From Prescottella defluvii (GTDB taxonomy: Bacteria > Actinomycetota > Actinomycetes > Mycobacteriales > Mycobacteriaceae): a stretch of 64,000 nucleotides of DNA. The notes beneath the pieces were generated by a model. It was not told where the DNA came from. It saw only the letters and a list, made by a program, of their open reading frames with translations, and did not search any database. The stretch covers positions 2,976,001 through 3,040,000 of the forward strand of contig CP121458.1 in NCBI GenBank assembly GCA_029690005.1, read 5' to 3'. Below are positions 44,402-59,621 of this stretch, one piece after another. The first letter of the stretch is position 1. Each line of letters starts with the position of its first letter. The position numbers were made by a program, and so were the translations under genes.

Positions 44402-47400
44402 ATGGGGAGGTTAGGCGGCGCCCTGCGTAAGGGCGTCATCCGAACTGTGGTCATGGCCATGCTGGCCGGCGTGGCCACAGTGTCGACCGTAACGGTCGGC
44501 GCAGGAACCGCGGCAGCCGCGGGCAACCTGCGATGCGATGTTCTCTATTCGGTCGACAACAATGCCGGCAAGGCGAAGCAGATCGACCCCGCGACGGGGG
44601 CGGCGACGGATGCCTTCGACGTGCTTCCGAGCGGCGATACTCGCCATAACCAGCTCGGGATCGGTCCTGGCGGCGCGTACGCGATCTACACGTCCGGTGA
44701 CGGCAATATCTACAAGTACGACGCCGCGTCAGGCAAGACGACCAGCACTGCCAGGGACAAGGGCGTCACCGTCGACACGCACGGTGCGATCAATCCGGCG
44801 AACGGGTTGTTCTACTACGGCGGGAAGGACAACAACGCAGACAGCTTCACGTTCGGTGCGTACGATCCCGTCAACAACAAGTCGCTCGGCGTCGTTCTGA
44901 AGGTGAACTTCGACAAGAAGACGACAGTCCGGGCGGCAACGGCGACATCGCGTTCGATGCCAAGGGCAACCTGTTCATCGTCGCGGCCGGGACAAAGGCC
45001 GCATCTACTCGGTCGCGGCCCCGATGCCGACGTCTTCAGTGCAGACTCTGACGGGCAAGGCGATCACCGAGGAATCGAGCTCGTTCAAGAAGAGCAATTC
45101 GATTGCGTTCGGACCGAATGGTTACCTGTTCGTCGGTGGCGGCGGAAGCCTCCTCAAGGTCGATCCGGGTACGGGCAAGGAAGTCCCGAGCAACCTGAAG
45201 AACTCGTCCATGACCGACATGGGCTCCTGCAACGATCCGAACACGATCGAGCTGCACAAGAATCTGCCCAGTGGGCGCGTCGGAAACGATGATCAGTTTG
45301 GCCTCGAGATCTCCGGTGGCGGCCTGAGCGAGGGCAACACGGCGATCACGACGGGTACCAAGTCCGGGTCCAGAGCGAGGCGGCCGGTCCGGTGCTCGGT
45401 TTGGCCGGTACGAAGTACGCCATCAAGGAGACCGCCCAGAACGGCGCGAACCTCGACAACTACGTCACTACGTGGGAGTGCGTGGACGCGAAGGCTGGGA
45501 CAAAGCTTGGCGGTGGCTCGGGGGCGACTGGTGAGGTGACACTTCCGGCTGGTCAGAGCGGCAAGAGCATCAGCTGCACCTTCACGAACGCAGCCAAGAA
45601 GCCCGGCCTGGACTTGGTGAAGTCGGTAACGCCGGACGGTCCCTACAAGGTCGGGGACGTCGTCACCTACACCTTCAAGATGACGAACACCGGTGCCGTG
45701 CCACTGAAGGACGTCAAGCCGGCCGAGAAGTTGTTCAATGGTTCTGCGAGCATGTCCGCGTTCGAATGCCCGGATGCGGCTAAGTCGTTGGCACCGAGCG
45801 CATCCGTGAGCTGCACTGCGAAGTACACGATCCTGCAGGGTGACGTCGACCGCGGAACCATCGACAACACCGCGACCGCGTCGGGCACCGATCCGGGTGG
45901 CAGGACCGTGTTGTCGAAGGAATCGAGTGCCAAGCTCGTCGGTAGCCCGGCAGCGGCTGGCATCACGCTGGACAAGGTCGCGTCGCCGAAGGGCGCCGAG
46001 GACTACAAGCTCGGTCAGACCATCAAGTACAGCTTCAATATCAAGAACACCGGCAATGTGACGCTGACGAAGCTGCGCGTGAACGAGGGCACCTTCACCG
46101 GCAATGGCAAGCTGCAGGACGTTAGCTGCCCGGATACTGCCTTGGCCCCCGGGGCCTCGGTGGCGTGCACCGCGACGTACACGCTGACGCAGGCAGACAT
46201 TGATCAGGGGTCCGTCGAGAACACCGCGACCGCGACGGGTACGCCTCCTGGCAAGGACACGCCGCCTATCGAGTCCAATCCGGACACGGAGACGGTCAAG
46301 GGCAATCCGGCGAAGTCGCTGTCGATCGTGAAGGGCGCGTCCCCGTCGACTACCGAGTCCTACAAGCTCGGCCAGAAGATCGAGTACACGTTCACGATCA
46401 AGAACACCGGTGACGTGACGCTGACGAACGTGCACCCCAACGAGGAGAAGTTCTCGGGCACGGGCACGCTGTCGAACCCGGTCTGTGAGGACGGGGCGAA
46501 GTCGCTGGCTCCCGGCAAGTCGGTGACCTGCACGGCGACTTACACTCTGACGCAGGCTGACATCGATGCCGGCAAGCTCGAGAACATCGCGACTGCGACG
46601 GGTACGCCTCCGGGTAATGGCGAGCCGGTGACGTCGGGTCCGGACACCAAGACGCTCGCGGGTGAGCCGAAGCCGGCGATCAGCCTGGAGAAGACCGCCT
46701 CGCTGACCGAGGCTGACCAGTTCAAGGTGGGCGAGACCATCACGTACACCTTCACGATGACCAACACCGGCAACGTGACGCTGAAGGACGTGCACCCCAA
46801 CGAGGTCGAGTTCACGGCGGGTAAGGACAAGCTCTCGGCGTTCGACTGCCCGGATCGGGACAAGCCGTTGGCGCCCAACGCCTCCGCGAAGTGCACCGCG
46901 GCGTACACGCTGACGCAGGAGGACGTCGACAGGGGCAAGCTCGACAACACTGCCACCGCGACCGGTACCACGCTGTCGGGTGATCCGGTGAAGTCGAATG
47001 AGGATACGGTGAAGCTCTCGGGCAACAAGAAGCCGGACCTCGAGATCAAGAAGACCGCGTCGCCCAAGAGCGTCGAGACCTTCAAGGTCGGCCAGGAGAT
47101 CACCTACACGTTCGACATCAAGAACACGGGCAACCAGACTCTGACGAACGTCAAGGTCGTCGAGGGGCATTTCACGGGCTTCGGGAAGATCACCGACCTG
47201 TCCTGCCCGGACGGCGCGAAGTCGATGCTCCCGGGTGCGACGGTGCAGTGTTCGGCGAAGTACACGATCACGCAGGCCGACGTGAACGCCGGCACGCTCG
47301 ACAACAGTGCGACCGCCACGGGTACGCCTCCGGGCACCGAGAAGCCGATCGAGTCGAAGCCGTCCGAGGAAACCCTGACCGGTGATCCGAAGCCGGGCCT

Positions 47401-48421
47401 GACGCTTCAGAAGACCGCGGATCCGCGTGAGAACGTCAAGGTGGGCGACACTGTCACCTACACGTTCGAGATCAAGAACACCGGTGATCAGACCCTCACC
47501 AAGGTGCACGTGAACGACAAGCAGTTCTCCGGTTCCGGCAAGCTGTCCGACATCTCGTGCCCGAAGAACTCGCTGGATCCCAGCGAGTCGGTGACCTGCA
47601 CGGCCACCTACGTGTTCACGGACAAGGACATGAAGGCCGGCAAGGTCGACAACATGGCCACGGCGACGGGTAACCAGCCGTCGGGCAAGCCCGTCGACTC
47701 GAACCTGTCGGAGGCCACGGTCACCGCGGGTGAGCAGCCCGGTGGAACGGGCTCGCTCGGTTCGCTCGGTACCGGTTCGCTCGGTTCCCTGGGCGTCGGC
47801 TCGCTAGCGGCGGGCTCGCTTGCGGCGGGATCGCTTGCGGCCGGCTCGCTTGCGGCAGGTTCGCTGGACGCCGGCTCGCTGGACGCGGGATCGCTTGCGG
47901 CGGGCTCGCTGGACGCCGGTTCGGTGGACGCGGGATCGCTTGCGGCGGGCTCGCTGGGCGCGGGCTCGCTGGACGCCGGTTCGGTGGACGCGGGATCGCT
48001 TGCGGCGGGATCGCTCGGCGCCGGTTCGCTGGCGGCTGGCTCCCTTGCGGCTGGCTCGAAGGAGAACTCGGGCTCGGCCGGCTCGACTGGTTCGGGTACG
48101 CCCGGCGGCTCGAACACTCCTGGTGGAGGAACGGAGACCGGTAATCCCGGAACGCCCGGCAACCCCGGCAATCCCGGTAACCCCGGAACCCCCGCTGACT
48201 CCGACAACGGCGGCAACGGCGGCAACGCCGGAAAGTCGGGAGACACGGGAACGACCGGCAACTCCGACACCGGGACCGGTGCGAAGATCGACTCCGGTCT
48301 GGGCGCCGACAGTGACGGCGGAATGAACGCCGGACTGGTCGCTGGTGGTCTGGTGCTGCTGATCGCCGCAGGCGGTGTGCTGCTCTTCGCACTGCGTCGG
48401 CGGAATCAGGGGAACGAGTGA
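44402..48421 (+). CDS. Large repeat-rich surface protein (beta-propeller-like N-terminus, six DUF11-like domains)
   Basis: About 1340 residues. ATG 44402 gives a signal peptide (VVMAMLAGVATVSTVTVGAG, then TAAAAG). The N-terminal 270 residues (LYSVDNNAGKAKQIDPATG, YAIYTSGDGNIYKYDA, IAFGPNGYLFVGGGGSLLKV) look like a beta-propeller of the DUF6923 kind. Six DUF11-like domains of about 118 residues follow, then a pentad array (G-S-L/V-A/D/G-A), a Gly/Pro/Asn linker (GNPGTPGNPGNPGNP), a membrane helix (GLVAGGLVLLIAAGGVLLFA) and tail RRRNQGNE. There is no LPxTG motif before the helix, so it may be membrane-anchored or use an unknown signal. Frames change near 44930, 45000 and 45370. A terminator separates it from the sortase gene. 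Confidence 0.85.
45602..47729 (+). repeat. Six tandem DUF11-like domains within the surface protein
   Basis: Repeat units begin at about 45602, 45955, 46312, 46672, 47032 and 47392, each near 355 bp. Shared protein landmarks are L-x-K-x-A-S-P near the start, YTFxxxNTGxxTL in the first third, a Cys-Pro pair (SCPD), LAPGxSVxCTATYTLTQADI and NTATATGTPPG near the end. Two Cys per unit may form a disulfide. Units share recognisable blocks at DNA level (for example GCGACGGGTACGCCTCC), so recombination between them is plausible. Confidence 0.85.
47750..48058 (+). repeat. 15-bp tandem array encoding G-S-L/V-x-A pentads
   Basis: About 20 units of 15 bp, regular from about 47805, encode pentads such as GSLAA, GSLDA, GSVDA and GSLGA with strict five-residue periodicity. 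The first few units (GSLGSLGTGSLGS) are irregular. It links the DUF11-like domains to the Gly/Pro wall-spanning tail. It is similar in period to, but different in consensus from, the A(D/N)LxX pentapeptide-repeat family. Such short repeats can change in copy number by slippage. Confidence 0.85.
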
Positions 48422-48464
48422 AGTGTGACGTCGCAGAACAACTGTGACGATCACTGATGAGTGA

Positions 48465-48510
48465 CCGAGTGGCCCGAGGCGTAACCGCCTCGGGCCACTC
48501 GGCTGTTTTT
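48465..48510 (+). terminator. Strong intrinsic terminator between surface protein and sortase genes
   Basis: Perfect 17-bp stem (arm CCGAGTGGCCCGAGGCG) with a TAAC loop, followed by CTGTTTTT. It lies 43 bp after the surface-protein stop and 31 bp before the sortase start, so the sortase needs read-through or its own promoter. Confidence 0.9.
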
Positions 48511-48541
48511 GAGAACCCAGTGTGAGCGGAGGACTTCCATC

Positions 48542-49279
48542 GTGGGCAGGCATTCGGCAGGGCGATCGTCGGGGCGCAGTGGTTCGATCCTGACGATCGT
48601 GATCGCGTTGGTGCTGCTCACGTGTGGTGGTTTTCTGGTCTTTCGGGGGTTGCAGCCCACGCCGGCGGCGTCGGCGCCGGTGCCGAAGTCGACGTTCGAT
48701 CTGACGCCGGACGGTGTGGTGGATCCGGTGGCCGGTCCGGCGCCGTCGATCGGTGCCGGTGGCAAGGCGCGTAAGCCGGGGCCGGCGTCGGCGGATCCGG
48801 CGAAGCGGCCGCAGATTCCGTTCGGACCCTTGCCGGACGATCACCTGGTGATTCCGGCGATCGGGGTGGAGACGGCGCTGGATCCGCTGGGGTTGGCGTC
48901 GGATGGGAGTTTGCTGCTGCCGCGGGATGTGGCGCAGGTGACGTATTGGACGGGGTCGGCGCCGATCGATGCGGCCGATGGCGGGATTCTGGTGGCCGGG
49001 CATGTGGACAACGCGAATCAGGGTGAGGGCGCGTTGTATTGGATGCACACGCTGTATCCGGGTGATGCGGTCTATCTGACGCGGGGTGGTGTGGTCACCC
49101 GCTGGAAGATCACGCGGATGGAGCGGTTCGTGAAGCAGGCGTTGCCGGAGTGGGCGTTCCAGGGTGCGACTGGTCCTCGGGAACTGCATCTGGTGACGTG
49201 CGGTGGCGAGGTCGTCAAGGACGCGCAGGGGCGGGGGACCTATCTGGAGAACGTGGTCGTCACCGCCGTCCCGTTCTGA
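48542..49279 (+). CDS. Class F-type sortase
   Basis: Cysteine transpeptidase of 245 residues. An N-terminal membrane helix (ILTIVIALVLLTCGGFLVF) is followed by a Pro-rich linker and the sortase beta-barrel. The catalytic His is in ILVAGHVDN, the Cys in HLVTCGGEV and the Arg probably in AQGRGTYLENVVV. DDHLVIPAIGVETALDPLGL and LLLPRDVAQVTYW also fit the class F actinobacterial sortases. GTG 48542 follows GGAGGA by 8 bases. The frame is intact. The last 14 codons recur, diverged, at 56010-56054. Its natural substrate could be the LPVTG adhesin downstream. Confidence 0.9.
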   Translation: MGRHSAGRSSGRSGSILTIVIALVLLTCGGFLVFRGLQPTPAASAPVPKSTFDLTPDGVVDPVAGPAPSIGAGGKARKPGPASADPAKRPQIPFGPLPDDHLVIPAIGVETALDPLGLASDGSLLLPRDVAQVTYWTGSAPIDAADGGILVAGHVDNANQGEGALYWMHTLYPGDAVYLTRGGVVTRWKITRMERFVKQALPEWAFQGATGPRELHLVTCGGEVVKDAQGRGTYLENVVVTAVPF

Positions 49280-49563
49280 CCCGCACGGGTCCGCGCCGTC
49301 GTTGTGACTGCGGTCTCAGCGCACCAAACAAACGGATGATTTAGAGGATGAAGTTTCAACTACATCCTCCGGCTTCGGGTGTCTCGGTTCGGGTCTTCTC
49401 GGTCTGCCGAATCATTATGTGGCGCAATGGATTGTTCGAGTTCGTCGACTGTCGATTGACGTCTGAGTTGCCCGGTTGCGGCGGACGGTTGTGTCACCGT
49501 CTGTCGCGGCATGTCCTGTATATGGATGTTTGTCCAGTTTGTGCTGTTAAGGGAAGGAATCGA
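49280..49563. other. Non-coding stretch between sortase and the adhesin block
   Basis: 284 bp with lower GC content than the flanks and no supported gene. It contains a 26-bp near-perfect palindrome, listed separately, and a likely ribosome-binding site (AAGGGAAGGAA) at its end for the 42-codon ORF that follows. Probably the promoter region of the adhesin block. Confidence 0.45.
49344..49369. promoter_or_regulatory. 26-bp near-perfect palindrome (candidate operator)
   Basis: The left arm GAGGATGAAGTT and right arm AACTACATCCTC are reverse complements except at one position, with a TC centre. It lies 65 bp after the sortase stop and about 510 bp before the adhesin ATG. Without a U-tract it looks more like an operator for a dimeric regulator than a terminator. 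Confidence 0.5.
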
Positions 49564-49692
49564 ATGGCAAGCCTTGCGGCCGCGTCGCGCGCGGCACGAA
49601 GACTGCTCGCCAGTCTTTTCACGTCCTCGCCCCAGAGTGGGCTGTCGGGCGGCGCTGCCGACCACGACCTCGGTGGCGCCGCCCGGGGGTAG
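49564..49692 (+). CDS. Small ORF of 42 codons upstream of the adhesin gene
   Basis: ATG 49564 is preceded by AAGGGAAGGAATCG, a good ribosome-binding site. The peptide begins MASLAAASRAARRLLASLF and ends GLSGGAADHDLGGAARG. The first half could form a basic amphipathic helix; the second is Gly/Ala-rich. It may be a genuine small protein, a leader peptide for the adhesin gene, or the start of a longer protein broken by a sequencing error. No homology recognised. Confidence 0.4.
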   Translation: MASLAAASRAARRLLASLFTSSPQSGLSGGAADHDLGGAARG

Positions 49693-49856
49693 TTGCGGCT
49701 GTTCTCGGGTCCGCGAGGGGCCACCTCTGAACCACCGGTGCTCACATCGAGGCCACAAGAGTGCGACGGAGCGGTTCCGGCGATCCCGTGCGCCAGTCCA
49801 GCAGCCTCTGGCACGCAGGCCAAATCAAGTGTGTGTTGAACGAAAGGTGTACCTCC

Positions 49857-52800
49857 ATGCGTAACCGTCTATTCCTGCGACGTGCTGGAGAGGGGGTGGT
49901 GTCTCGGTGGGCGGCGCTGGGGATGATCTTTGCGGTCCTGGCGCTGGTCATATCTTCGTTCTCGATTCGCCCCGGTTGCCTTGGCGGACGAAAGCGGTAC
50001 CTCGGCCACCTCAACTACGACGCGAACAACGCAGAGCTCGCCCTCGTCAGCGGAGCAGAGCACCACTCCTGCCACGCCCACGACGAAGGCGCCGGCTGCG
50101 ACCACGTCGGAGTCGCCCGCGACCACGTCGGAGTCGCCCGCGACCACGACGAAGGCGCCGGCTGTATCCATGTCACAGTCGCCCGCGACCACGACGAGCG
50201 CGGCCCCTACGTCGGCGAAGCGAGGCGCGGCGGTCACGCCGCTCGGACTCAATCGCGGCATCGTGGTGGAGATCACCGACATCCAGGTCGAGCGTAAGAA
50301 GGACCAGCAGATCACGGTCGGGGATTCCGTCGAGGTTCACGGCACGTGGGACGCGAGGGAGGCCGACCCGAAGCCGGGCGACCAGTTCACGGTCAAATTC
50401 CCCGATGAGCTGAAGCTCGATGCCAACCCGTCGATCGCGCTGGAGGGCGGCGGGACGGTCTGGGGCACCTGCGAGCTGGTGGCCACCACCAATCTCATGA
50501 CGTGTGTGCTCTCCGACGCCGTGGCCGAGCGCCCCATGGATGTGTACGGAACCTTCAAGGTCTTCACGAAGGCGGTCCAATACACCACGTCCGAGACGGT
50601 CAACTTCGAGATCAACGATGTGCTCACGCCGGTCGACCTACCCGGTAAGGGCGGCATCAGCGACGGTCGCGTGATCGGCGAGGCCGCGAAGTCCGGCAAG
50701 CTCCAGGACAACAAGCAGTCTGTGCGTTGGACCATTGACATCCCCGGAGCCGATTTGGCCGCTCTGGACACGGCCGGCAACGGTTCGGTGACCCTGAGTG
50801 ACACGCTCTTCGAGCAACATGAAGCTGTGCGAGGGCGCCCTGCCCAACGCGAGGTTGCTGTCCGGACGTCCGGGTGATCTCAAGGACGTCCCCGGCGGGG
50901 TCGCCGTCACGCAGACTGGCGGCGCGGGTGCTCCCGTCTCGATCGCGATCAACAACGGTAAGGCCTTCAAGAGCGACATGCTCTACCGCGTCGAGTACAC
51001 CTCGTGCACGACCAGCGGCGAGGTGGATCTCCCCGGAGAGGACGGCGCGCAAGCCGTCTACAACAACTCCGTGACGATCGGCGGCAAGACGGTGGGCGCG
51101 CCCGGTGTCGGGCAGGACTGGCGTCCGAAGACCGGGCCGGAAAAGTCCGGCACGCTCCTTCAAGGTGACCGCTTTCGGAAGGCAGCCTGGACCATCATGG
51201 TCCCGGGCAGCTTCATCGACGCCAGCCCCAACCAGGTGGTCACCATTGCGGAGAGTCTCGGTGCCGGGCACGCCGTCTGCGACGCCGGCCTCGGGCTGAA
51301 GATCGAGCGCGCCAACCGTCTGCCCGCACTGGGCGGCACTGGACTCGGAAGCACCGACGTCACCAAGGATTTCGACGTCGTCAGCACCGCCGTGGCCGGC
51401 GGCACCTCCTTCAACCTGACAATCACGCCGAAGGATCCCGCGCAGATCGACCCGAAGCAGTACTACTACGTGAAGTACTCGACCTGCCTCACCGGGGACA
51501 AGGTGCCGGACTCCACGAATACCTTCACCAACTCGGCGACCGTCAACGGCACGCCGGTCAGCGGTTCGGCGAAGGGTCCCGGCTTCACCGGCAAGAAGAA
51601 CGGCAAGCTCAATCTCGAATCGACGGACGTCGCCGGCCAGGCACAGCCGGCCGGCACGACCCTCACCTGGAACGTGGAGGTTCCCGGACAGCATCTCGAG
51701 AGCCTCAACGAGCGTGCGGTCATCACGGACACCTTCTCCGGCACCATGACGGTGTGTGAGGTCAGCAACGATCTCAAGGCGAATCTCAACCTCAGGGTCA
51801 CCGCGAAGGACTTCCTCGGCAACACCAATGCCAACGCAAACCGGGACCTCACCGCAGGCACCACGGTCACGCGTACCGCCAACGGGATCGATTTCACCCT
51901 CCCGAAGGAGGGTGTCGACTACAGCCGTGAGGTGCGGTACTTCATCGAGTACACCCTCTGCACCTCGAGCGGCGGGCTGGACGAGCGCAACACTCAGTAC
52001 AGCAACACGCTCGCCTACGAGGGCGGCCCGAATCTCTCGTACGGTGTCAAGCAGGAATGGGGCGGTGGCGGCACCGGCACCGGTGTGGCGCGGGGCTCGT
52101 TCTCGCTGCTGAAGCAGATCGATTCCTCCTCCGAGAAGTTCCCGGAGGGAACCGAGTTCACCGTGAAGGTCGAGGAGTTCGCCCCGGGCAAGGATCCGGC
52201 GAAGGACGCCGCGGCGAGCACCTACGAGATCAAGGTAAAGGCCGACGGAACGCCGGTGAGCGGGCTCGACCCCCGCGGCACCGGCTGGCAGATCCGCCTC
52301 TCCGAGGTCAGCCTGCCCAAGGTCGACGGCGTCTACTTCGAGCAGGGGAAGTTCCGCCCGGCGGAGGGTGTGACGCTCAACGCGGACGGCACCCAGGCGC
52401 TGGTGACCATCGCGCCGAAGAGCAACGTCGAGGTCAAGCTGGTCAACAAGGCCGTCCTGGGCTCGGCGAAGATCACCAAGACCGTCATCGGTGACGGGAT
52501 GAGTGGGCTCACGGGCAACGAGAAGTTCGTCGTCAACGCGGAGATCGAGCGCGGCGACGGGAACGTCGGCGCCGAGACGCGAGTGATCACGCTGAAGAAC
52601 GGTCAGCACTACGACCTGGGCAAACTGCCCATCGGGGCGAAGGTCACCTTCACCGAGGTGAAGCCCGCCGACACCGACCTCGTGACGTGGTCGGATCCGG
52701 TCATCACGCCGAAGACCCTCACCATCGGCACCGACGCAGCGGCGAACACGGTCTCCGTCACCAACGAGGCCAAGATCACCATGGGCACCTTCGAGTTGAA

Positions 52801-54636
52801 GAAGAAGCTCACGGGTCCGGAGGCATTCGACAAGGCCGTGCCGAAGACGTTCGACGTGCTTGCCACCTGGACCGCCGACGGCAACCCGCGGTCCAAGACG
52901 CTGACGCTCCCGGCCGACGGCAGCGCGATTCCGTTCGGCGAGAGCCTGCCCGGCGGCACCAAGGTCACGCTGGCCGAGGTGGTTCCGGCAGACGGTAACG
53001 GTCTCGCCTGGGGCGTGCCCGCATACTCCGGGAACGTGACGATCGGTGACGACAGCTCGGCCGTGGTGACCATCGGCAAGGACCGGGCAAGGTTGAGGTG
53101 ACGAACTTCGTCGACACCAACGACGGAACCCTGCGTATCGCCAAGCAGGTCAGCGGCGAGGCCGCCGGCGCCGTCGGCGACGACGTGGAGTTCACGGTCC
53201 AGGCGCGCTGGCGCGACGGCACTAACTACGCCACCAAGGATCTGATCGTCAAGAAGGGTGTGGCCACGCCGCTCGGCGTCGACCTCCCCGTCGGCACCGA
53301 GGTGACCTTCACCGAAACCGGTCGTCCCGATGTCGCAGGAGTCGAGTGGGGCACGATCTCGTCGGGGCACCGACCCGCGCGGGGAATCGTGGCTCGTCAC
53401 GAATCCCGGCGGTACCGCGACGGGCATCGTCTCCGACGACCCGACCGAGGGCCGTTTGATCACCCTGACGAACGAGGCACTGTGGAAGAGCGGCTCGGTC
53501 GAGTTTACGAAGTTCATCTTCGACGGCGACAACCCGATCCCCGCCACCGAGGCTGACCTGCCCGACGGCGCGGCGTTCGAGGTCAGGATCGAGGGAATCG
53601 ATCCGGCGCTACCGGCAGGAACCGATTTCCCGGCAGTGGGTGAGACCATCACCCTCGACGCCGGAAACGGCTGGAGTTGGAAGTCCGGCGAGGTTCTGCC
53701 GCGGAACACCGTGATCACCTTCTCGGAGGTCGATCCCGCTGCCCTGCCCGGCATGGACTGGGCGCGGCCGTTCTACTACGTGGCTGCGGACGCTAACGAG
53801 CCCGGCGACCGGGACACCGTCCAGATCGTTGCGGGCGACGAGGCTGTGGTGGAGATTCGCAACCGCCCGATCCCGACGGCGGACGTGGACATCGACAAGA
53901 TCGTGACCGGCCCCAAGGGCAACCAGGTTGCCAAGGACGGATCCACGATCTTCCAGGTCACGGCCACGTGGACGGACGTCGACGACGAGGCGCGTTCCTG
54001 CATCCTCGACGTGAAGCCGGGCGCTTCGGCCACCCCGACGGCGGATTGTGACGCCTCGGTCATCGACGGCCGGGTCCAGTTCCCGCTCGACACGGAGATC
54101 ACCTTCGTCGAGACCGGCGCCCACACCGACGTGACCAACGTCAAGTGGGGCGAGGTGGTGTGGAGCGTCAAGGAGGGCAGCGCGGACGTCGTCAAGATCG
54201 ACGGCAAGCCGACCGGGTCTCCGTCACTCTCACCGGTGACGCGAACGATTCGGTCGTGCTGGGACTCGAGAACAAGACCAGCAGCAACGGTCTGATCATC
54301 ATCCCGCTCCCGATCCCGTTGCCGCCGTGGGGCGGATCGCTGATCCCGCCGGGATCGGGCTCCCAGTGGCCGACCCCGCCGGTCTCCGGACAGCCGGGCG
54401 AGCCGGGCCAGCCGGGTCAGCCGGGTGGACCTGTTTCGCCGGAGAAGCCGGGCGAGACCGGTCACAACGGTGCGCCGGGCAAGCCGGCGCCGGGCAAGCC
54501 TGCTCCGGACCAGTCGTCGTCCCTGCCGGTGACCGGTGCGAACGTCATCTGGCTCGCCGGTGCGGCGCTGGCCCTGATCGCCGGTGGCGCATGGCTGACC
54601 CTGCGTAGCCGCAGGCGGGTGTCCGGCGAGGGGTAA
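49857..54636 (+). CDS. LPVTG-anchored multidomain adhesin
   Basis: About 1593 residues. ATG 49857 follows GAAAGGT and gives a signal peptide (WAALGMIFAVLALVISSFS). A Thr/Ser/Pro linker (TTKAPAATTSESPATT) leads to adhesin domains of SdrG-like immunoglobulin fold (VGDSVEVHGTWDAREADPKP), a middle part with regular domain ends (NNSVTIGGKTVG, NSATVNGTPVSG), then several DUF5979-like units (SAKITKTVIGDG, GTFELKKKLTGPEAFDKAVP, GTLRIAKQVSGEAAG). A Pro/Gly spacer (PGEPGQPGQPGGP) precedes the sorting signal LPVTG (54523-54537), a hydrophobic helix and RSRRR. Frames change near 49975, 50810, 53085, 53370 and 54220. Likely a sortase-attached wall protein mediating adhesion; the ligand is unknown. Confidence 0.88.
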
Positions 54637-54658
54637 CTCCCTGGCCGGCACACGGAAA

Positions 54659-54697
54659 GCGGGGCGGGTGCGACCTCCTCGGTCGCATCCGCCCCGC
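54659..54697 (+). terminator. Hairpin after the adhesin gene
   Basis: GCGGGGCGGGTGCGACC pairs with GGTCGCATCCGCCCCGC (one G/T mismatch) around a TCCTC loop, 22 bp after the adhesin stop. No U-tract follows, so termination may be partial. Confidence 0.65.
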
Positions 54698-54786
54698 ACT
54701 GCTGCCACACCGACCGAATACCGCTCACCAGCGGATCAAACACCTCGCGGCCGATCGCTCGGCCGCCCTTGAAAGGAGAATCTCCC

Positions 54787-54927
54787 GTGCTCGTCCTTCC
54801 GCTCTCTCTCACCTTCGACGTCCAGACCACCGGTTCGGCCGTGATCGACGGTCTCGGTCGCCTGTCCGTCCTTCTCTATGATCTGCTCGGTGGCGCCGGA
54901 AGCGCCGCGATCAACGTGGGCAGCTAG
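54787..54927 (+). CDS. Small ORF of 46 codons with strong ribosome-binding site
   Basis: GTG 54787 follows AAAGGAGA by 7 bases, one of the best ribosome-binding sites in the window. The peptide runs MLVLPLSLTFDVQTTGSAV, IDGLGRLSVLLYDLLGG and ends AGSAAINVGS. It is hydrophobic with no charged N-terminus and no Cys, so it does not look like a signal peptide. It sits between the adhesin and the class E sortase, 35 bp before the latter. Envelope-located small proteins without signal sequences occur in mycolic-acid bacteria (small porins), but no specific match is claimed. Confidence 0.55.
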   Translation: MLVLPLSLTFDVQTTGSAVIDGLGRLSVLLYDLLGGAGSAAINVGS

Positions 54928-54962
54928 CCGGTTCGACACACCTCTGGAGGGGGCTCCGGCCC

Positions 54963-55766
54963 ATGCGCGATACGAAATTGCCGGGGCCGGAACGGACCCG
55001 GCCGAATGCCGGCCGGGTCGTCGGCGAACTGCTCCTCACGATAGGAGCCGTCCTCCTGCTCTACGTGTTCTACGAGGCGTACTGGACCAACATCGTCTCG
55101 GGGCGCCTGCAGGACGAGGTCGACAGAAGCCTGGACGAGTCCTGGGGTCAGGGGCGACCGGTGACGAGCCGGTCGCTCCGCCGACCCCGGCGCTCGGCGA
55201 AGGGTTTGCGCGCGTGCACATTCCGCCCTCGACGCGGCCTACGCCATCGTTGAGGGCACGCGCGACGAGGACCTGAGGGCCGGCCCCGGCCACTACGTCG
55301 ACACACAGATGCCTGGCGAGCCGGGGAATCTCGCGCTCGCCGGGCATCGGCATCGGGACCGGTGCGGTGTTCCAGCACCTCGATCGACTCGACGCGTGCG
55401 ACGCGGTCGTCGTCGAGACCGAATCCCAGTGGGTCACTTACCGAGTGCTCCGCTCGAGACTTCGTCGCCCGAACGGCGTACGGAGGCGGCCGCCTGCCTG
55501 GGTCCCGAGCAGGTCGATCGCGTCGCCGTCGGTGACTACGCGCACGTCCAGGGCCGGCACATCACCACGCCCGACGACATCGCAGTCGTCAACCCACTGC
55601 CCGGCGCCCGTCGGTCGCAGCTGACCCCGGGCTCGAAAGCATGCTGACGCTGACCACGTGCCATCCGCTGTTCTCGAACACCGAACGCATGATCGTGCAC
55701 GCCATGCTCGTCGAAACAATCCCGAAGTCCTCGGGCCACATTCCCACGGCATTGCAGGAGCGATAA
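54963..55766 (+). CDS. Class E-type sortase
   Basis: Sortase of about 268 residues. ATG 54963 follows GGAGGGGG. One membrane helix (LLLTIGAVLLLYVFYEAYW) precedes the barrel. Reading across frames gives ALGEGFARVHIP, GPGHYVDTQMPGEPGNLALA, catalytic His in AGHR, and Cys and Arg in LTLTTCHPLFSNTERMIVHA. TLTTC followed by a basic or acidic substrate loop is typical of class E enzymes, the housekeeping-type sortase of high-GC actinobacteria. At least four frameshifts occur (about 55190, 55340, 55450 and 55625). The density is high, so decay cannot be fully excluded, but all catalytic residues are preserved. Confidence 0.82.
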
Positions 55767-55918
55767 ATGTACGGCTACCTCTGGCGTGCTCTCCCGGCCC
55801 GCGACCGGTGAAGGCACTGCTGCTGATCGTCCTCGTTGTCGCGCTGGTGCTGCTGCTCATGGAAGTCGTATTTCCCTGGCTGTCCGAGCACATGCCCTAC
55901 TCGGACGTCACCGTATAG
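55767..55918 (+). CDS. Small membrane protein of the class E sortase cassette
   Basis: About 50 residues: MYGYLWRALPGPRPVKAL, then one hydrophobic helix (LLLIVLVVALVLLLMEVVF) and the end PWLSEHMPYSDVTV. It begins directly after the sortase stop codon (TAAATG). A short protein with the same plan (MYG-x-W start, PGP, one helix, PW, DVTV end) is, from memory, commonly encoded beside class E sortases in rhodococci and relatives. One base is missing near 55797. It may stabilise or guide the sortase; no function is established. Confidence 0.75.
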
Positions 55919-55929
55919 ACCGCCCTCAC

Positions 55930-56034
55930 TGTTCGACGCGGCACGCCGCCGCGAGCAAGGAATGAGTGAACGGTAATGTCGCAGAACACCTGTGACGATC
56001 GCTGATGTGGGCGCCTATCCGGAGAACGTCGTGG

Positions 56035-56054
<20 letters not shown>
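55930..56054 (+). pseudogene. Scar: 3' end of a surface-protein gene fused to the 3' end of a class F sortase gene
   Basis: This strip matches two places upstream. Bases about 55930-56006 resemble 48382-48457: the end codons of the surface protein (RRR-x-Q-G-N-E-stop) and the 3' untranslated start GTCGCAGAACA-CTGTGACGATC-CTGATG. Bases 56010-56054 match the last 14 codons of the class F sortase (GAYPENVVVTAVPF here, GTYLENVVVTAVPF there). The terminator and about 700 bp of sortase body are absent between them. The simplest reading is a second, diverged surface-protein/sortase module that has lost its interior. Confidence 0.8.

Positions 56055-59621
<3,567 letters not shown>

What the first reader, a model, noticed from the sequence alone, without database searches (positions are those of the whole stretch)
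44402..55918. Surface-display locus with two sortases of different classes, an LPVTG adhesin and a repeat-rich second surface protein
Within 11.5 kb are a class F-type sortase, a class E-type sortase with its small membrane partner, one classical LPVTG substrate, one giant DUF11-repeat protein, and two small ORFs. Sortases of two classes in one locus raise the question of whether they have separate substrates or act in sequence. In the M. tuberculosis order as I recall it, the flanking genes (ilvA and treZ) are close together, so this block looks inserted. I know of no described wall-attachment system with this composition in rhodococci.
Basis: partly seen in the sequence, partly recalled or inferred. 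Interest (0 to 1): 0.8.

Follow-up and report, generated by a model that had tools for sequence, protein, structure and literature searches.

The report
Two sortase and surface-protein pairs
The block is two separate wall-attachment kits side by side, each a sortase enzyme with its own surface protein; one protein carries an unusual attachment tag that seems to belong to class F sortases, whose tag has been an open question.

Summary
The genes are present as described, but the assembly is indel-rich: the DUF11 protein, adhesin, SrtE and its small partner are frame-broken, as are ilvA, treZ and the MFS gene. Relatives carry intact copies. The genus is Prescottella, and P. equi DSM 20307 carries the same genes; this is very probably the R. 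equi "srt2" island of Letek et al. 2010, so the island is not new.

What is new is its logic. Module A: LPVTG adhesin, a conserved 46-aa ORF, class E sortase, 50-aa membrane partner. Module B: a DUF11/DUF7507 protein whose tail has no LPxTG but a conserved IDSGLGAD box, plus a class F-like sortase. In 14 Prescottella genomes SrtE goes with the adhesin (8/8, 0/6 without) and SrtF with the tail (7/7, 0/7). A second SrtF copy sits beside an adhesin-like ectodomain bearing the same tail. A second tail subtype and its sortase subtype occur in the same 9 of 301 genomes, unlinked in 8.

Neighbours of class F sortases in other Actinomycetota carry related Gly-rich tails (consensus PxGGVxTGxGG). NCBIfam models these as GVDTG_CTERM; my searches found no paper tying tail to enzyme. 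Best reading: separate sortase-substrate pairs. Cleavage is inferred, not shown.

The parts
44402..48421 (+). Module B substrate: signal peptide, N-terminal domain, DUF7507/DUF11 repeats, Ser/Gly- and Pro/Gly-rich stalk, C-terminal tail with TM and RRR; frame-broken near 44950 and 45290-45390
48287..48310 (+). IDSGLGAD box of the proposed class F sorting signal, a short way before the TM segment
   Evidence: coordinates counted from the reading frame
48542..49279 (+). SrtF, class F-like sortase (GTG start; N-terminal TM helix; His154, Cys220, Asn237 of the aligned protein invariant in 45 sequences)
49857..54636 (+). Module A substrate: adhesin with Big_8 and DUF5979 domains and LPVTG anchor; frame-broken at several places
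54523..54537 (+). LPVTG motif
   Evidence: coordinates counted from the reading frame
54787..54927 (+). Conserved 46-aa ORF with a strong ribosome-binding site, found in the 14 module A loci that continue past the adhesin (partial match in G217)
54963..55766 (+). SrtE, class E sortase (in pieces here; intact in relatives)
55767..55918 (+). 50-aa membrane partner of SrtE (frame-broken here)
55978..56056 (+). Likely relic of a second SrtF copy: an upstream intergenic repeat (also at 48421-48459) next to the last SrtF codons, overlapping the 3' end of treZ

Best explanation
The block is two independent sortase-substrate modules in one place. Module A: SrtE (class E), with its 50-aa membrane partner, cleaves the LPVTG signal of the adhesin and joins it to the cell wall; a conserved 46-aa protein belongs to this module. 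Module B: SrtF (class F-like) recognises a different, proline-free signal, [LKR]-I-D-[SA]-G-L-G-A-[DNE] followed by a TM segment and Arg-rich tail, on the DUF11 repeat protein, probably cutting at the [S/A]-G bond by analogy with T-G in LPxTG. The signal is a local variant of a general class F signal, consensus P-x-G-G-V-x-T-G-x-G-G. Shown: module composition, tail conservation, tail-sortase co-occurrence in cis and in trans. Inferred: cleavage, the scissile bond, wall attachment and adhesion.
For: Genus, 14 genomes (tables compiled): SrtF x tail 7/0/0/7; SrtE x adhesin 8/0/0/6; cross-pairs not associated (p=0.10). Module A is contiguous in 13 of the 14 loci that continue past the adhesin. Module B occurs without the adhesin in G001, G060, G076, G208, and at a second site in G007. 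There the protein beside the SrtF copy is Big_8/SdrD_B/DUF5979, an adhesin-type ectodomain, with the SrtF-type tail (88% over 43 aa) and no match to the DUF11 protein's N-domain or repeats. In trans: tails of type IxSGxGAGESG in 9 of 301 genomes; the sortase found beside one of them has orthologs (59-63%) in the other eight and no intact one elsewhere in the 301, at places far from the tails. Generality: 67 of 80 named class F loci have an upstream TM+basic-tail ORF. A motif learned from a separate set separates 37 non-redundant held-out tails from 72 control tails (p=6e-8). NCBIfam GVDTG_CTERM matches 38 of 66 such tails.
Against: No biochemistry. In P. equi and R. hoagii AcN21-7 module A lies between the tail gene and SrtF, and in Rhodococcus sp. 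OK519 they are about 44 kb apart. G217 (85% complete) has adhesin and 46-aa ORF but no SrtE in the 4.8 kb that follow and only fragments of class E elsewhere; G208 has a class E sortase without this adhesin. Eight of the nine second-type genomes are one genus, so counts are not independent. Tail subtypes were assigned by reading them, and three weak tail hits (G033, G079, G192) were set aside. The window's own tail has no GVDTG_CTERM match at E<=1. 13 of 80 class F loci showed no upstream tail ORF, and 15 of 37 non-redundant held-out tails lack the regex. P. acnes class F is called a housekeeping sortase (title seen in a reference list), and I recall, from no call, that it was assayed on LPxTG.
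Confidence: 0.7

Rival explanations
1. The two sortases act in sequence on the same proteins, for example SrtF joining the DUF11 protein to the LPVTG adhesin (pilus-like) and SrtE anchoring the product.
For: Both modules are neighbours in 5 of 14 genomes, and the DUF11 gene and SrtF flank module A in P. equi and R. hoagii AcN21-7. Over 301 genomes SrtF and the adhesin are associated (p=1e-6).
Against: Each module occurs alone: adhesin without SrtF in 9 genomes of 301, SrtF without adhesin in 4. Within the genus SrtF x adhesin and SrtE x tail are not associated (p=0.10); the 301-genome association comes from the genus itself.
Confidence: 0.08
2. The DUF11 protein is only membrane-anchored by its TM tail; SrtF serves other proteins and the two genes are neighbours by descent.
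For: No LPxTG in the tail; weak or no match to curated anchor models.
Against: The pre-TM box is nearly invariant while ectodomains differ; the second tail and sortase subtypes co-occur without linkage in 8 of 9 genomes; in G008 and G009 a likely SrtF scar remains and the tail protein is absent too.
Confidence: 0.18
3. One sortase (SrtE or SrtF) anchors both proteins and the other is redundant.
For: In Actinoplanes deleting four class F sortases gave no phenotype while the class E enzyme mattered (passages of PMC13251363).
Against: The same paper set aside the class F neighbours for lacking a known motif and did not analyse them further. Here each substrate tracks its own sortase within the genus.
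Confidence: 0.05

Closest known systems
R. equi srt2 HGT island (Letek et al. 2010, PMC2947987; passages seen)
   Same: Sortase island with an LPVTG substrate plus a second putative substrate; only the LPVTG one in R. erythropolis; the P. equi type strain carries the genes seen here (L115)
   Different: In the passages seen it is not split into modules and the second signal is not identified; REQ27480 itself could not be compared by sequence here
NCBIfam NF058571 GVDTG_CTERM sorting domain
   Same: Same kind of tail, found beside class F sortases (38 of 66 tails)
   Different: The window tail (KIDSGLGAD) does not match it; a search for GVDTG gave 2 papers, unrelated by title
Actinoplanes srtF1/srtF4 with AMIS_11010/AMIS_36440 (PMC13251363; passages seen)
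   Same: Class F sortase beside a secreted TM+basic-tail protein without a known pentapeptide; authors say these 'may encode substrates'
   Different: No motif proposed in the passages seen and not analysed further; I did not compare their tails
Streptomyces SrtE1 with LAXTG chaplins (PMC5148588; passages seen)
   Same: Class E enzyme; a GHY loop that I take for the conserved beta3/beta4 Tyr is in 12 of 12 relatives read
   Different: The substrate here is mostly LPVTG, not LAXTG

Membership tests
Class E sortase (NF033747) | Score above the curated cut-off (160) | tested here: met
   241.7 bits for the intact G004 ortholog; 8 hits over the cut-off in 7 genomes of the genus. The window copy is in pieces, each below it
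Class E sortase (NF033747) | Cys and Arg in the TLTTC...R pattern and the beta3/4 Tyr | tested here: met
   GHY loop in 12 of 12 relatives; TLTTC..R read in 11 of 12 (the regex missed G005)
Class F sortase (NF033748) | Score above the curated cut-off (166) | tested here: not met
   78.7 bits for the G004 ortholog, E=3.6e-22; hence 'class F-like'
Class F sortase (NF033748) | N-terminal TM helix, sortase-like strands, catalytic His and Cys | tested here: met
   AlphaFold2 pLDDT 86.9, helix 12-36 then strands; H and C invariant in 45. A fold comparison was not possible
GVDTG_CTERM sorting domain (NF058571) | Score above the curated cut-off (29) | tested here: not met
   No match for the window tail at E<=1; 10 of 14 tails in the set match at E<=1, best 1.3e-6
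LPXTG anchor (TIGR01167, PF00746) | LPXTG + TM + basic tail on the adhesin | tested here: met
   18.2 and 21.2 bits, cut-off 15.9, for two relatives; window PF00746 20.4, cut-off 20
R. equi srt2 island | LPVTG protein plus a second substrate plus sortases in P. equi | tested here: met
   L115/L044 P. equi DSM 20307
R. equi srt2 island | Identity of REQ27480 with this adhesin | not testable with these tools
   Strain 103S locus tags were not at hand; supplements not readable

The most novel reading that the evidence does not exclude
Class F sortases are a mechanistically distinct class: they read proline-free, glycine-rich signals (P-x-G-G-V-x-T-G-x-G-G and the IDSGLGAD variant), and the position in the last strand that holds the catalytic Arg in other sortases is an invariant Asn. 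In 45 aligned sequences His, Cys and Asn237 are invariant, and 11 have no Arg 5-17 residues after the Cys. Each tail subtype is matched to one sortase subtype, so genomes can hold several orthogonal wall-attachment channels.
Probability: 0.4. Interest if true: 0.75.

Novelty: new variant of a known kind. Interest (0 to 1): 0.58.

Why it matters
Signals have been assigned to class A-E sortases; the passages I read assign none to class F, and a 2026 study says the physiological roles of class F remain unknown. The tails found here are a concrete, peptide-scale prediction of that signal. Co-occurrence in trans suggests orthogonal sortase-signal pairs, which would be useful as tools and would let many unannotated actinobacterial proteins be called wall-anchored.

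Tried and rejected
A first random-start motif search on the redundant tail set locked onto other sequence and separated held-out tails poorly; after removing redundancy and seeding from every k-mer it found P-x-G-[GAS]-[VA]-x-T-G. A loose regex matched 32.5% of shuffled tails and was not used. LPxTG-like motifs were in 1 of 37 non-redundant held-out tails (the P. equi adhesin, L115) and in 1 of 72 controls. Solved-structure searches by sequence gave no match for SrtF alone and only distant sortases by profile, best E 2e-4 and 2e-5. Sequential or pilus-like action was ranked low. Insertion of the whole block as one recent unit was rejected because of the likely SrtF scars in G008 and G009. Literature searches (listings unless said otherwise): Rhodococcus+sortase (80 papers, 20 listed), 'class F sortase' (12), a five-term search with class F and sorting signal (7), sortase+DUF4397 (0), sortase+P. 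acnes+catalytic+class F (3), GVDTG (2), sortase+LPVTG (5), Prescottella+sortase (1).

One search showed that in G006 all six genes lie between ilvA and treZ. One search added G208 as a class E carrier without the adhesin. My odds for the best explanation went from 0.72 to 0.70 for these.

Rows dropped before counts: the 67 upstream tail ORFs include L142 (a spurious 82-aa ORF, dropped, leaving 66) and L115 (the adhesin, not the DUF11 protein). Of the 6 control tails that match the regex I judge 4 (L115, L136, L163, L185) to be likely real substrates; they were left in the control count. Tail hits G033, G079, G192 were set aside as not of the ID[SA]G type. In the 10-of-10 table for the LIDSG-type tail, G060, G076 and G208 were assigned by reading their tails, and G004 counts in both tail types.
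Full report
What is there. The window lies in a 5.8-Mb genome of 79% completeness. Frame breaks hit ilvA, treZ, a methyltransferase, the DUF11 protein, the adhesin, SrtE and the small protein, and the MFS gene is split over two ORFs. I treat them as assembly indels: the other 13 genomes of the genus are 99-100% complete, and open copies of the block's genes were read in relatives. SrtF and the 46-aa ORF are intact in the window. I read proteins from relatives and mended nothing.

Where it is. I call the genus Prescottella on that ground. Letek et al. 2010 described in R. equi 103S an srt2 island with two putative sortase substrates, one LPVTG, and only that one in R. erythropolis (PMC2947987, passages only). 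The P. equi type strain carries such a locus, so I take the window block to be srt2; the 103S sequence itself was not compared.

Two modules. One search places the genes in 21 regions. Adhesin, 46-aa ORF, SrtE and 50-aa partner are contiguous in 13 of the 14 loci that continue past the adhesin (G000, G002-G008, G025, G092, G097, G144, G244). The exception is G217 (85% complete), which has the adhesin and part of the 46-aa ORF but no SrtE in the next 4.8 kb; G212 is cut by its contig end, with a class E sortase on another contig. The tail protein and SrtF occur in genomes without the adhesin in G001, G060, G076 and G208, and at a second chromosomal site of G007. In G003 and G004 they flank module A; in G006 the same order holds with about 38 kb of other DNA before SrtF. 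Within the 14 genomes SrtE and the adhesin are in the same 8, and SrtF and the tail in the same 7; cross-pairs are not associated (tables). Only one further class E sortase passes the cut-off in the genus, in G007. Outside the genus 6 of 7 adhesin carriers have a class E sortase over the cut-off (G217 only fragments), and of three SrtF carriers without adhesin G208 has one while G060 and G076 have none. So SrtE goes closely, not perfectly, with the adhesin.

The second sorting signal. The DUF11 protein has signal peptide, repeats, TM segment and RRR, but no LPxTG. Its tails read GALIDSGLGADSDGG or close variants before the TM segment; R. rhodnii has LIDSGLGAD and G208 RIDAGLGAN, HNM0569 KIDSGLGAE. 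The G007 second site is a natural domain swap. Its protein has Big_8, SdrD_B and DUF5979 domains, an adhesin-type ectodomain (the LPVTG protein has Big_8 and DUF5979), yet it carries the IDSGLGAD tail (88% over 43 aa), has no match to the DUF11 protein's N-domain or repeats, and stands beside SrtF. The tail, not the ectodomain, follows the sortase.

A test in trans. A tail profile matched 21 of 301 family genomes. Ten carry the LIDSG type, and these are the ten genomes with SrtF at E<=1e-40. Nine (G004 is in both groups) carry a second type, IxSGxGAGESG, on proteins of up to 2508 aa; three weak hits (G033, G079, G192) were set aside. In 12 wider regions one search found a class F sortase in one only (G004:C10). 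I then searched that sortase in the same 301 genomes. Orthologs of 59-63% are in the other eight tail genomes, on other contigs or more than 0.6 Mb from the tails. The remaining hits at E<=1e-20 are 34-39% identical (G001, G029, G060, G076, G208) or a copy split over two frames in G002, which has no such tail. Eight of the nine genomes are one genus, so the counts overstate independence; G004, in another genus, is one independent repeat. G008 and G009 lack SrtF and the tail, yet keep what looks like the SrtF 3' end next to treZ (9 and 15 residues), which fits joint loss.

Generality. A class-wide search found class F matches in 115 of 148 genomes; the 30 loci returned gave 21 upstream tail ORFs. 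A width-9 motif learned from their 16 non-redundant tails, P-x-G-[GAS]-[VA]-x-T-G, was tested on the 80 named loci (the best 80 of 386 confirmed). Sixty-seven have an upstream TM+basic-tail ORF, one of them spurious (L142); 37 are non-redundant. Twenty-one of 37 exceed the 95% shuffle threshold against 4 of 72 control tails from the same loci (Mann-Whitney p=6e-8). The regex [VIAPM].[TSA]G.G[GSTA] matches 22 of 37, 6 of 72 controls and 7.4% of shuffles. In 10 neighbours scanned, Pfam found DUF4397 (3), Excalibur, sub-threshold CHRD and VWA, and nothing in 4, so the ectodomains are diverse. NCBIfam GVDTG_CTERM matches 38 of 66 tails at E<=0.01, so NCBI curators have already modelled the general tail. 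The only two held papers with the word GVDTG are unrelated by title. The window tail is not matched by that model.

The enzyme. Across 45 class F-type sequences His154, Lys198, Thr219, Cys220 and Asn237 are invariant, besides some Gly and Pro. Asn237 starts the last strand, where other classes have the catalytic Arg (SrtE here: TLTTC..R); 11 of 45 have no Arg 5-17 residues after the Cys. That Asn replaces Arg is an inference from alignment and needs a structure.

History of the site. ilvA and treZ bracket all six genes in 6 of 14 genomes (G000, G003-G007), module A in G002 and G008, module B in G001, a likely SrtF scar in G009, and none of it in G011 and G013; G010 had no treZ match and in G012 the two flanks are on different contigs. 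The window and G005 carry SrtF beside the DUF11 gene and a 3' relic of SrtF at treZ; G001, G003, G004 and G006 have SrtF next to or overlapping treZ. The simplest history is SrtF convergent with treZ early in the genus, followed by loss, and by relocation or duplication towards the DUF11 gene.

How it works, and limits. I propose that SrtE attaches the LPVTG adhesin and SrtF the DUF11 protein, in parallel and without shared substrates. Cleavage, wall linkage and any role in adhesion are untested. The best contrary points are the G217 and G208 exceptions, 13 of 80 class F loci without a detected tail neighbour, 15 of 37 non-redundant tails that miss the regex, and separation of tail gene and SrtF in three genomes.

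Verdict. The island is known; the modular logic and the class F signal variant are, as far as my searches show, unpublished. Literature basis: listings for all papers, passages only for PMC2947987, PMC13251363, PMC11854999 and PMC5148588.

Noticed in passing
window 54787-54927: A 46-aa ORF with no NCBIfam match for its G004 copy is conserved with module A; its core TTGSA.(I/V)D.LG.LS..LYDL is nearly constant over 13 rows. Size and lack of a signal peptide recall mycomembrane porin-like peptides (recalled, not tested).
   Followed up: partly
window 55978-56056 and 48421-48459: Likely SrtF relic and a repeated intergenic element; the relic also occurs in G005, and its 3' part in G008 and G009.
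   Followed up: yes
L076, L080, L082-L084 and Prescottella loci: SrtE orthologs keep a GHY loop, which I take for the Tyr said to favour LAXTG, yet most partner adhesins end in LPVTG; two are LAVTG (G097, G144). The G217 adhesin ends in LANTG and has no SrtE beside it.
   Followed up: partly
L222-L232 (mostly Rhodococcus-type genus g23): Giant DUF11-type repeat proteins up to 2508 aa with the INSGGGAGESG tail, not linked to a class F sortase (one scanned with Pfam).
   Followed up: partly
L229 (G004:C11): A third tail type in R. hoagii AcN21-7, GLIDAGLGADGG, on a protein with no class F sortase in the fetched 17 kb; possibly another SrtF substrate.
   Followed up: no
L244, L249 (P. defluvii, G002): A class F sortase gene split over two frames, with no matching tail protein found.
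   Followed up: no
L271 (G007:C1:545302): A second class E sortase with a related small membrane partner but no LPxTG protein noticed among the longest ORFs nearby.
   Followed up: no
L116/L034 (P. agglutinans): A 776-aa ORF that I read as sulfatase-like sits between the MFS gene and the DUF11 gene; no family search was run.
   Followed up: no
G006:C1 about 1346940-1384710 (Rhodococcus sp. OK519): About 38 kb of other DNA separates module A from SrtF inside the ilvA-treZ interval.
   Followed up: no
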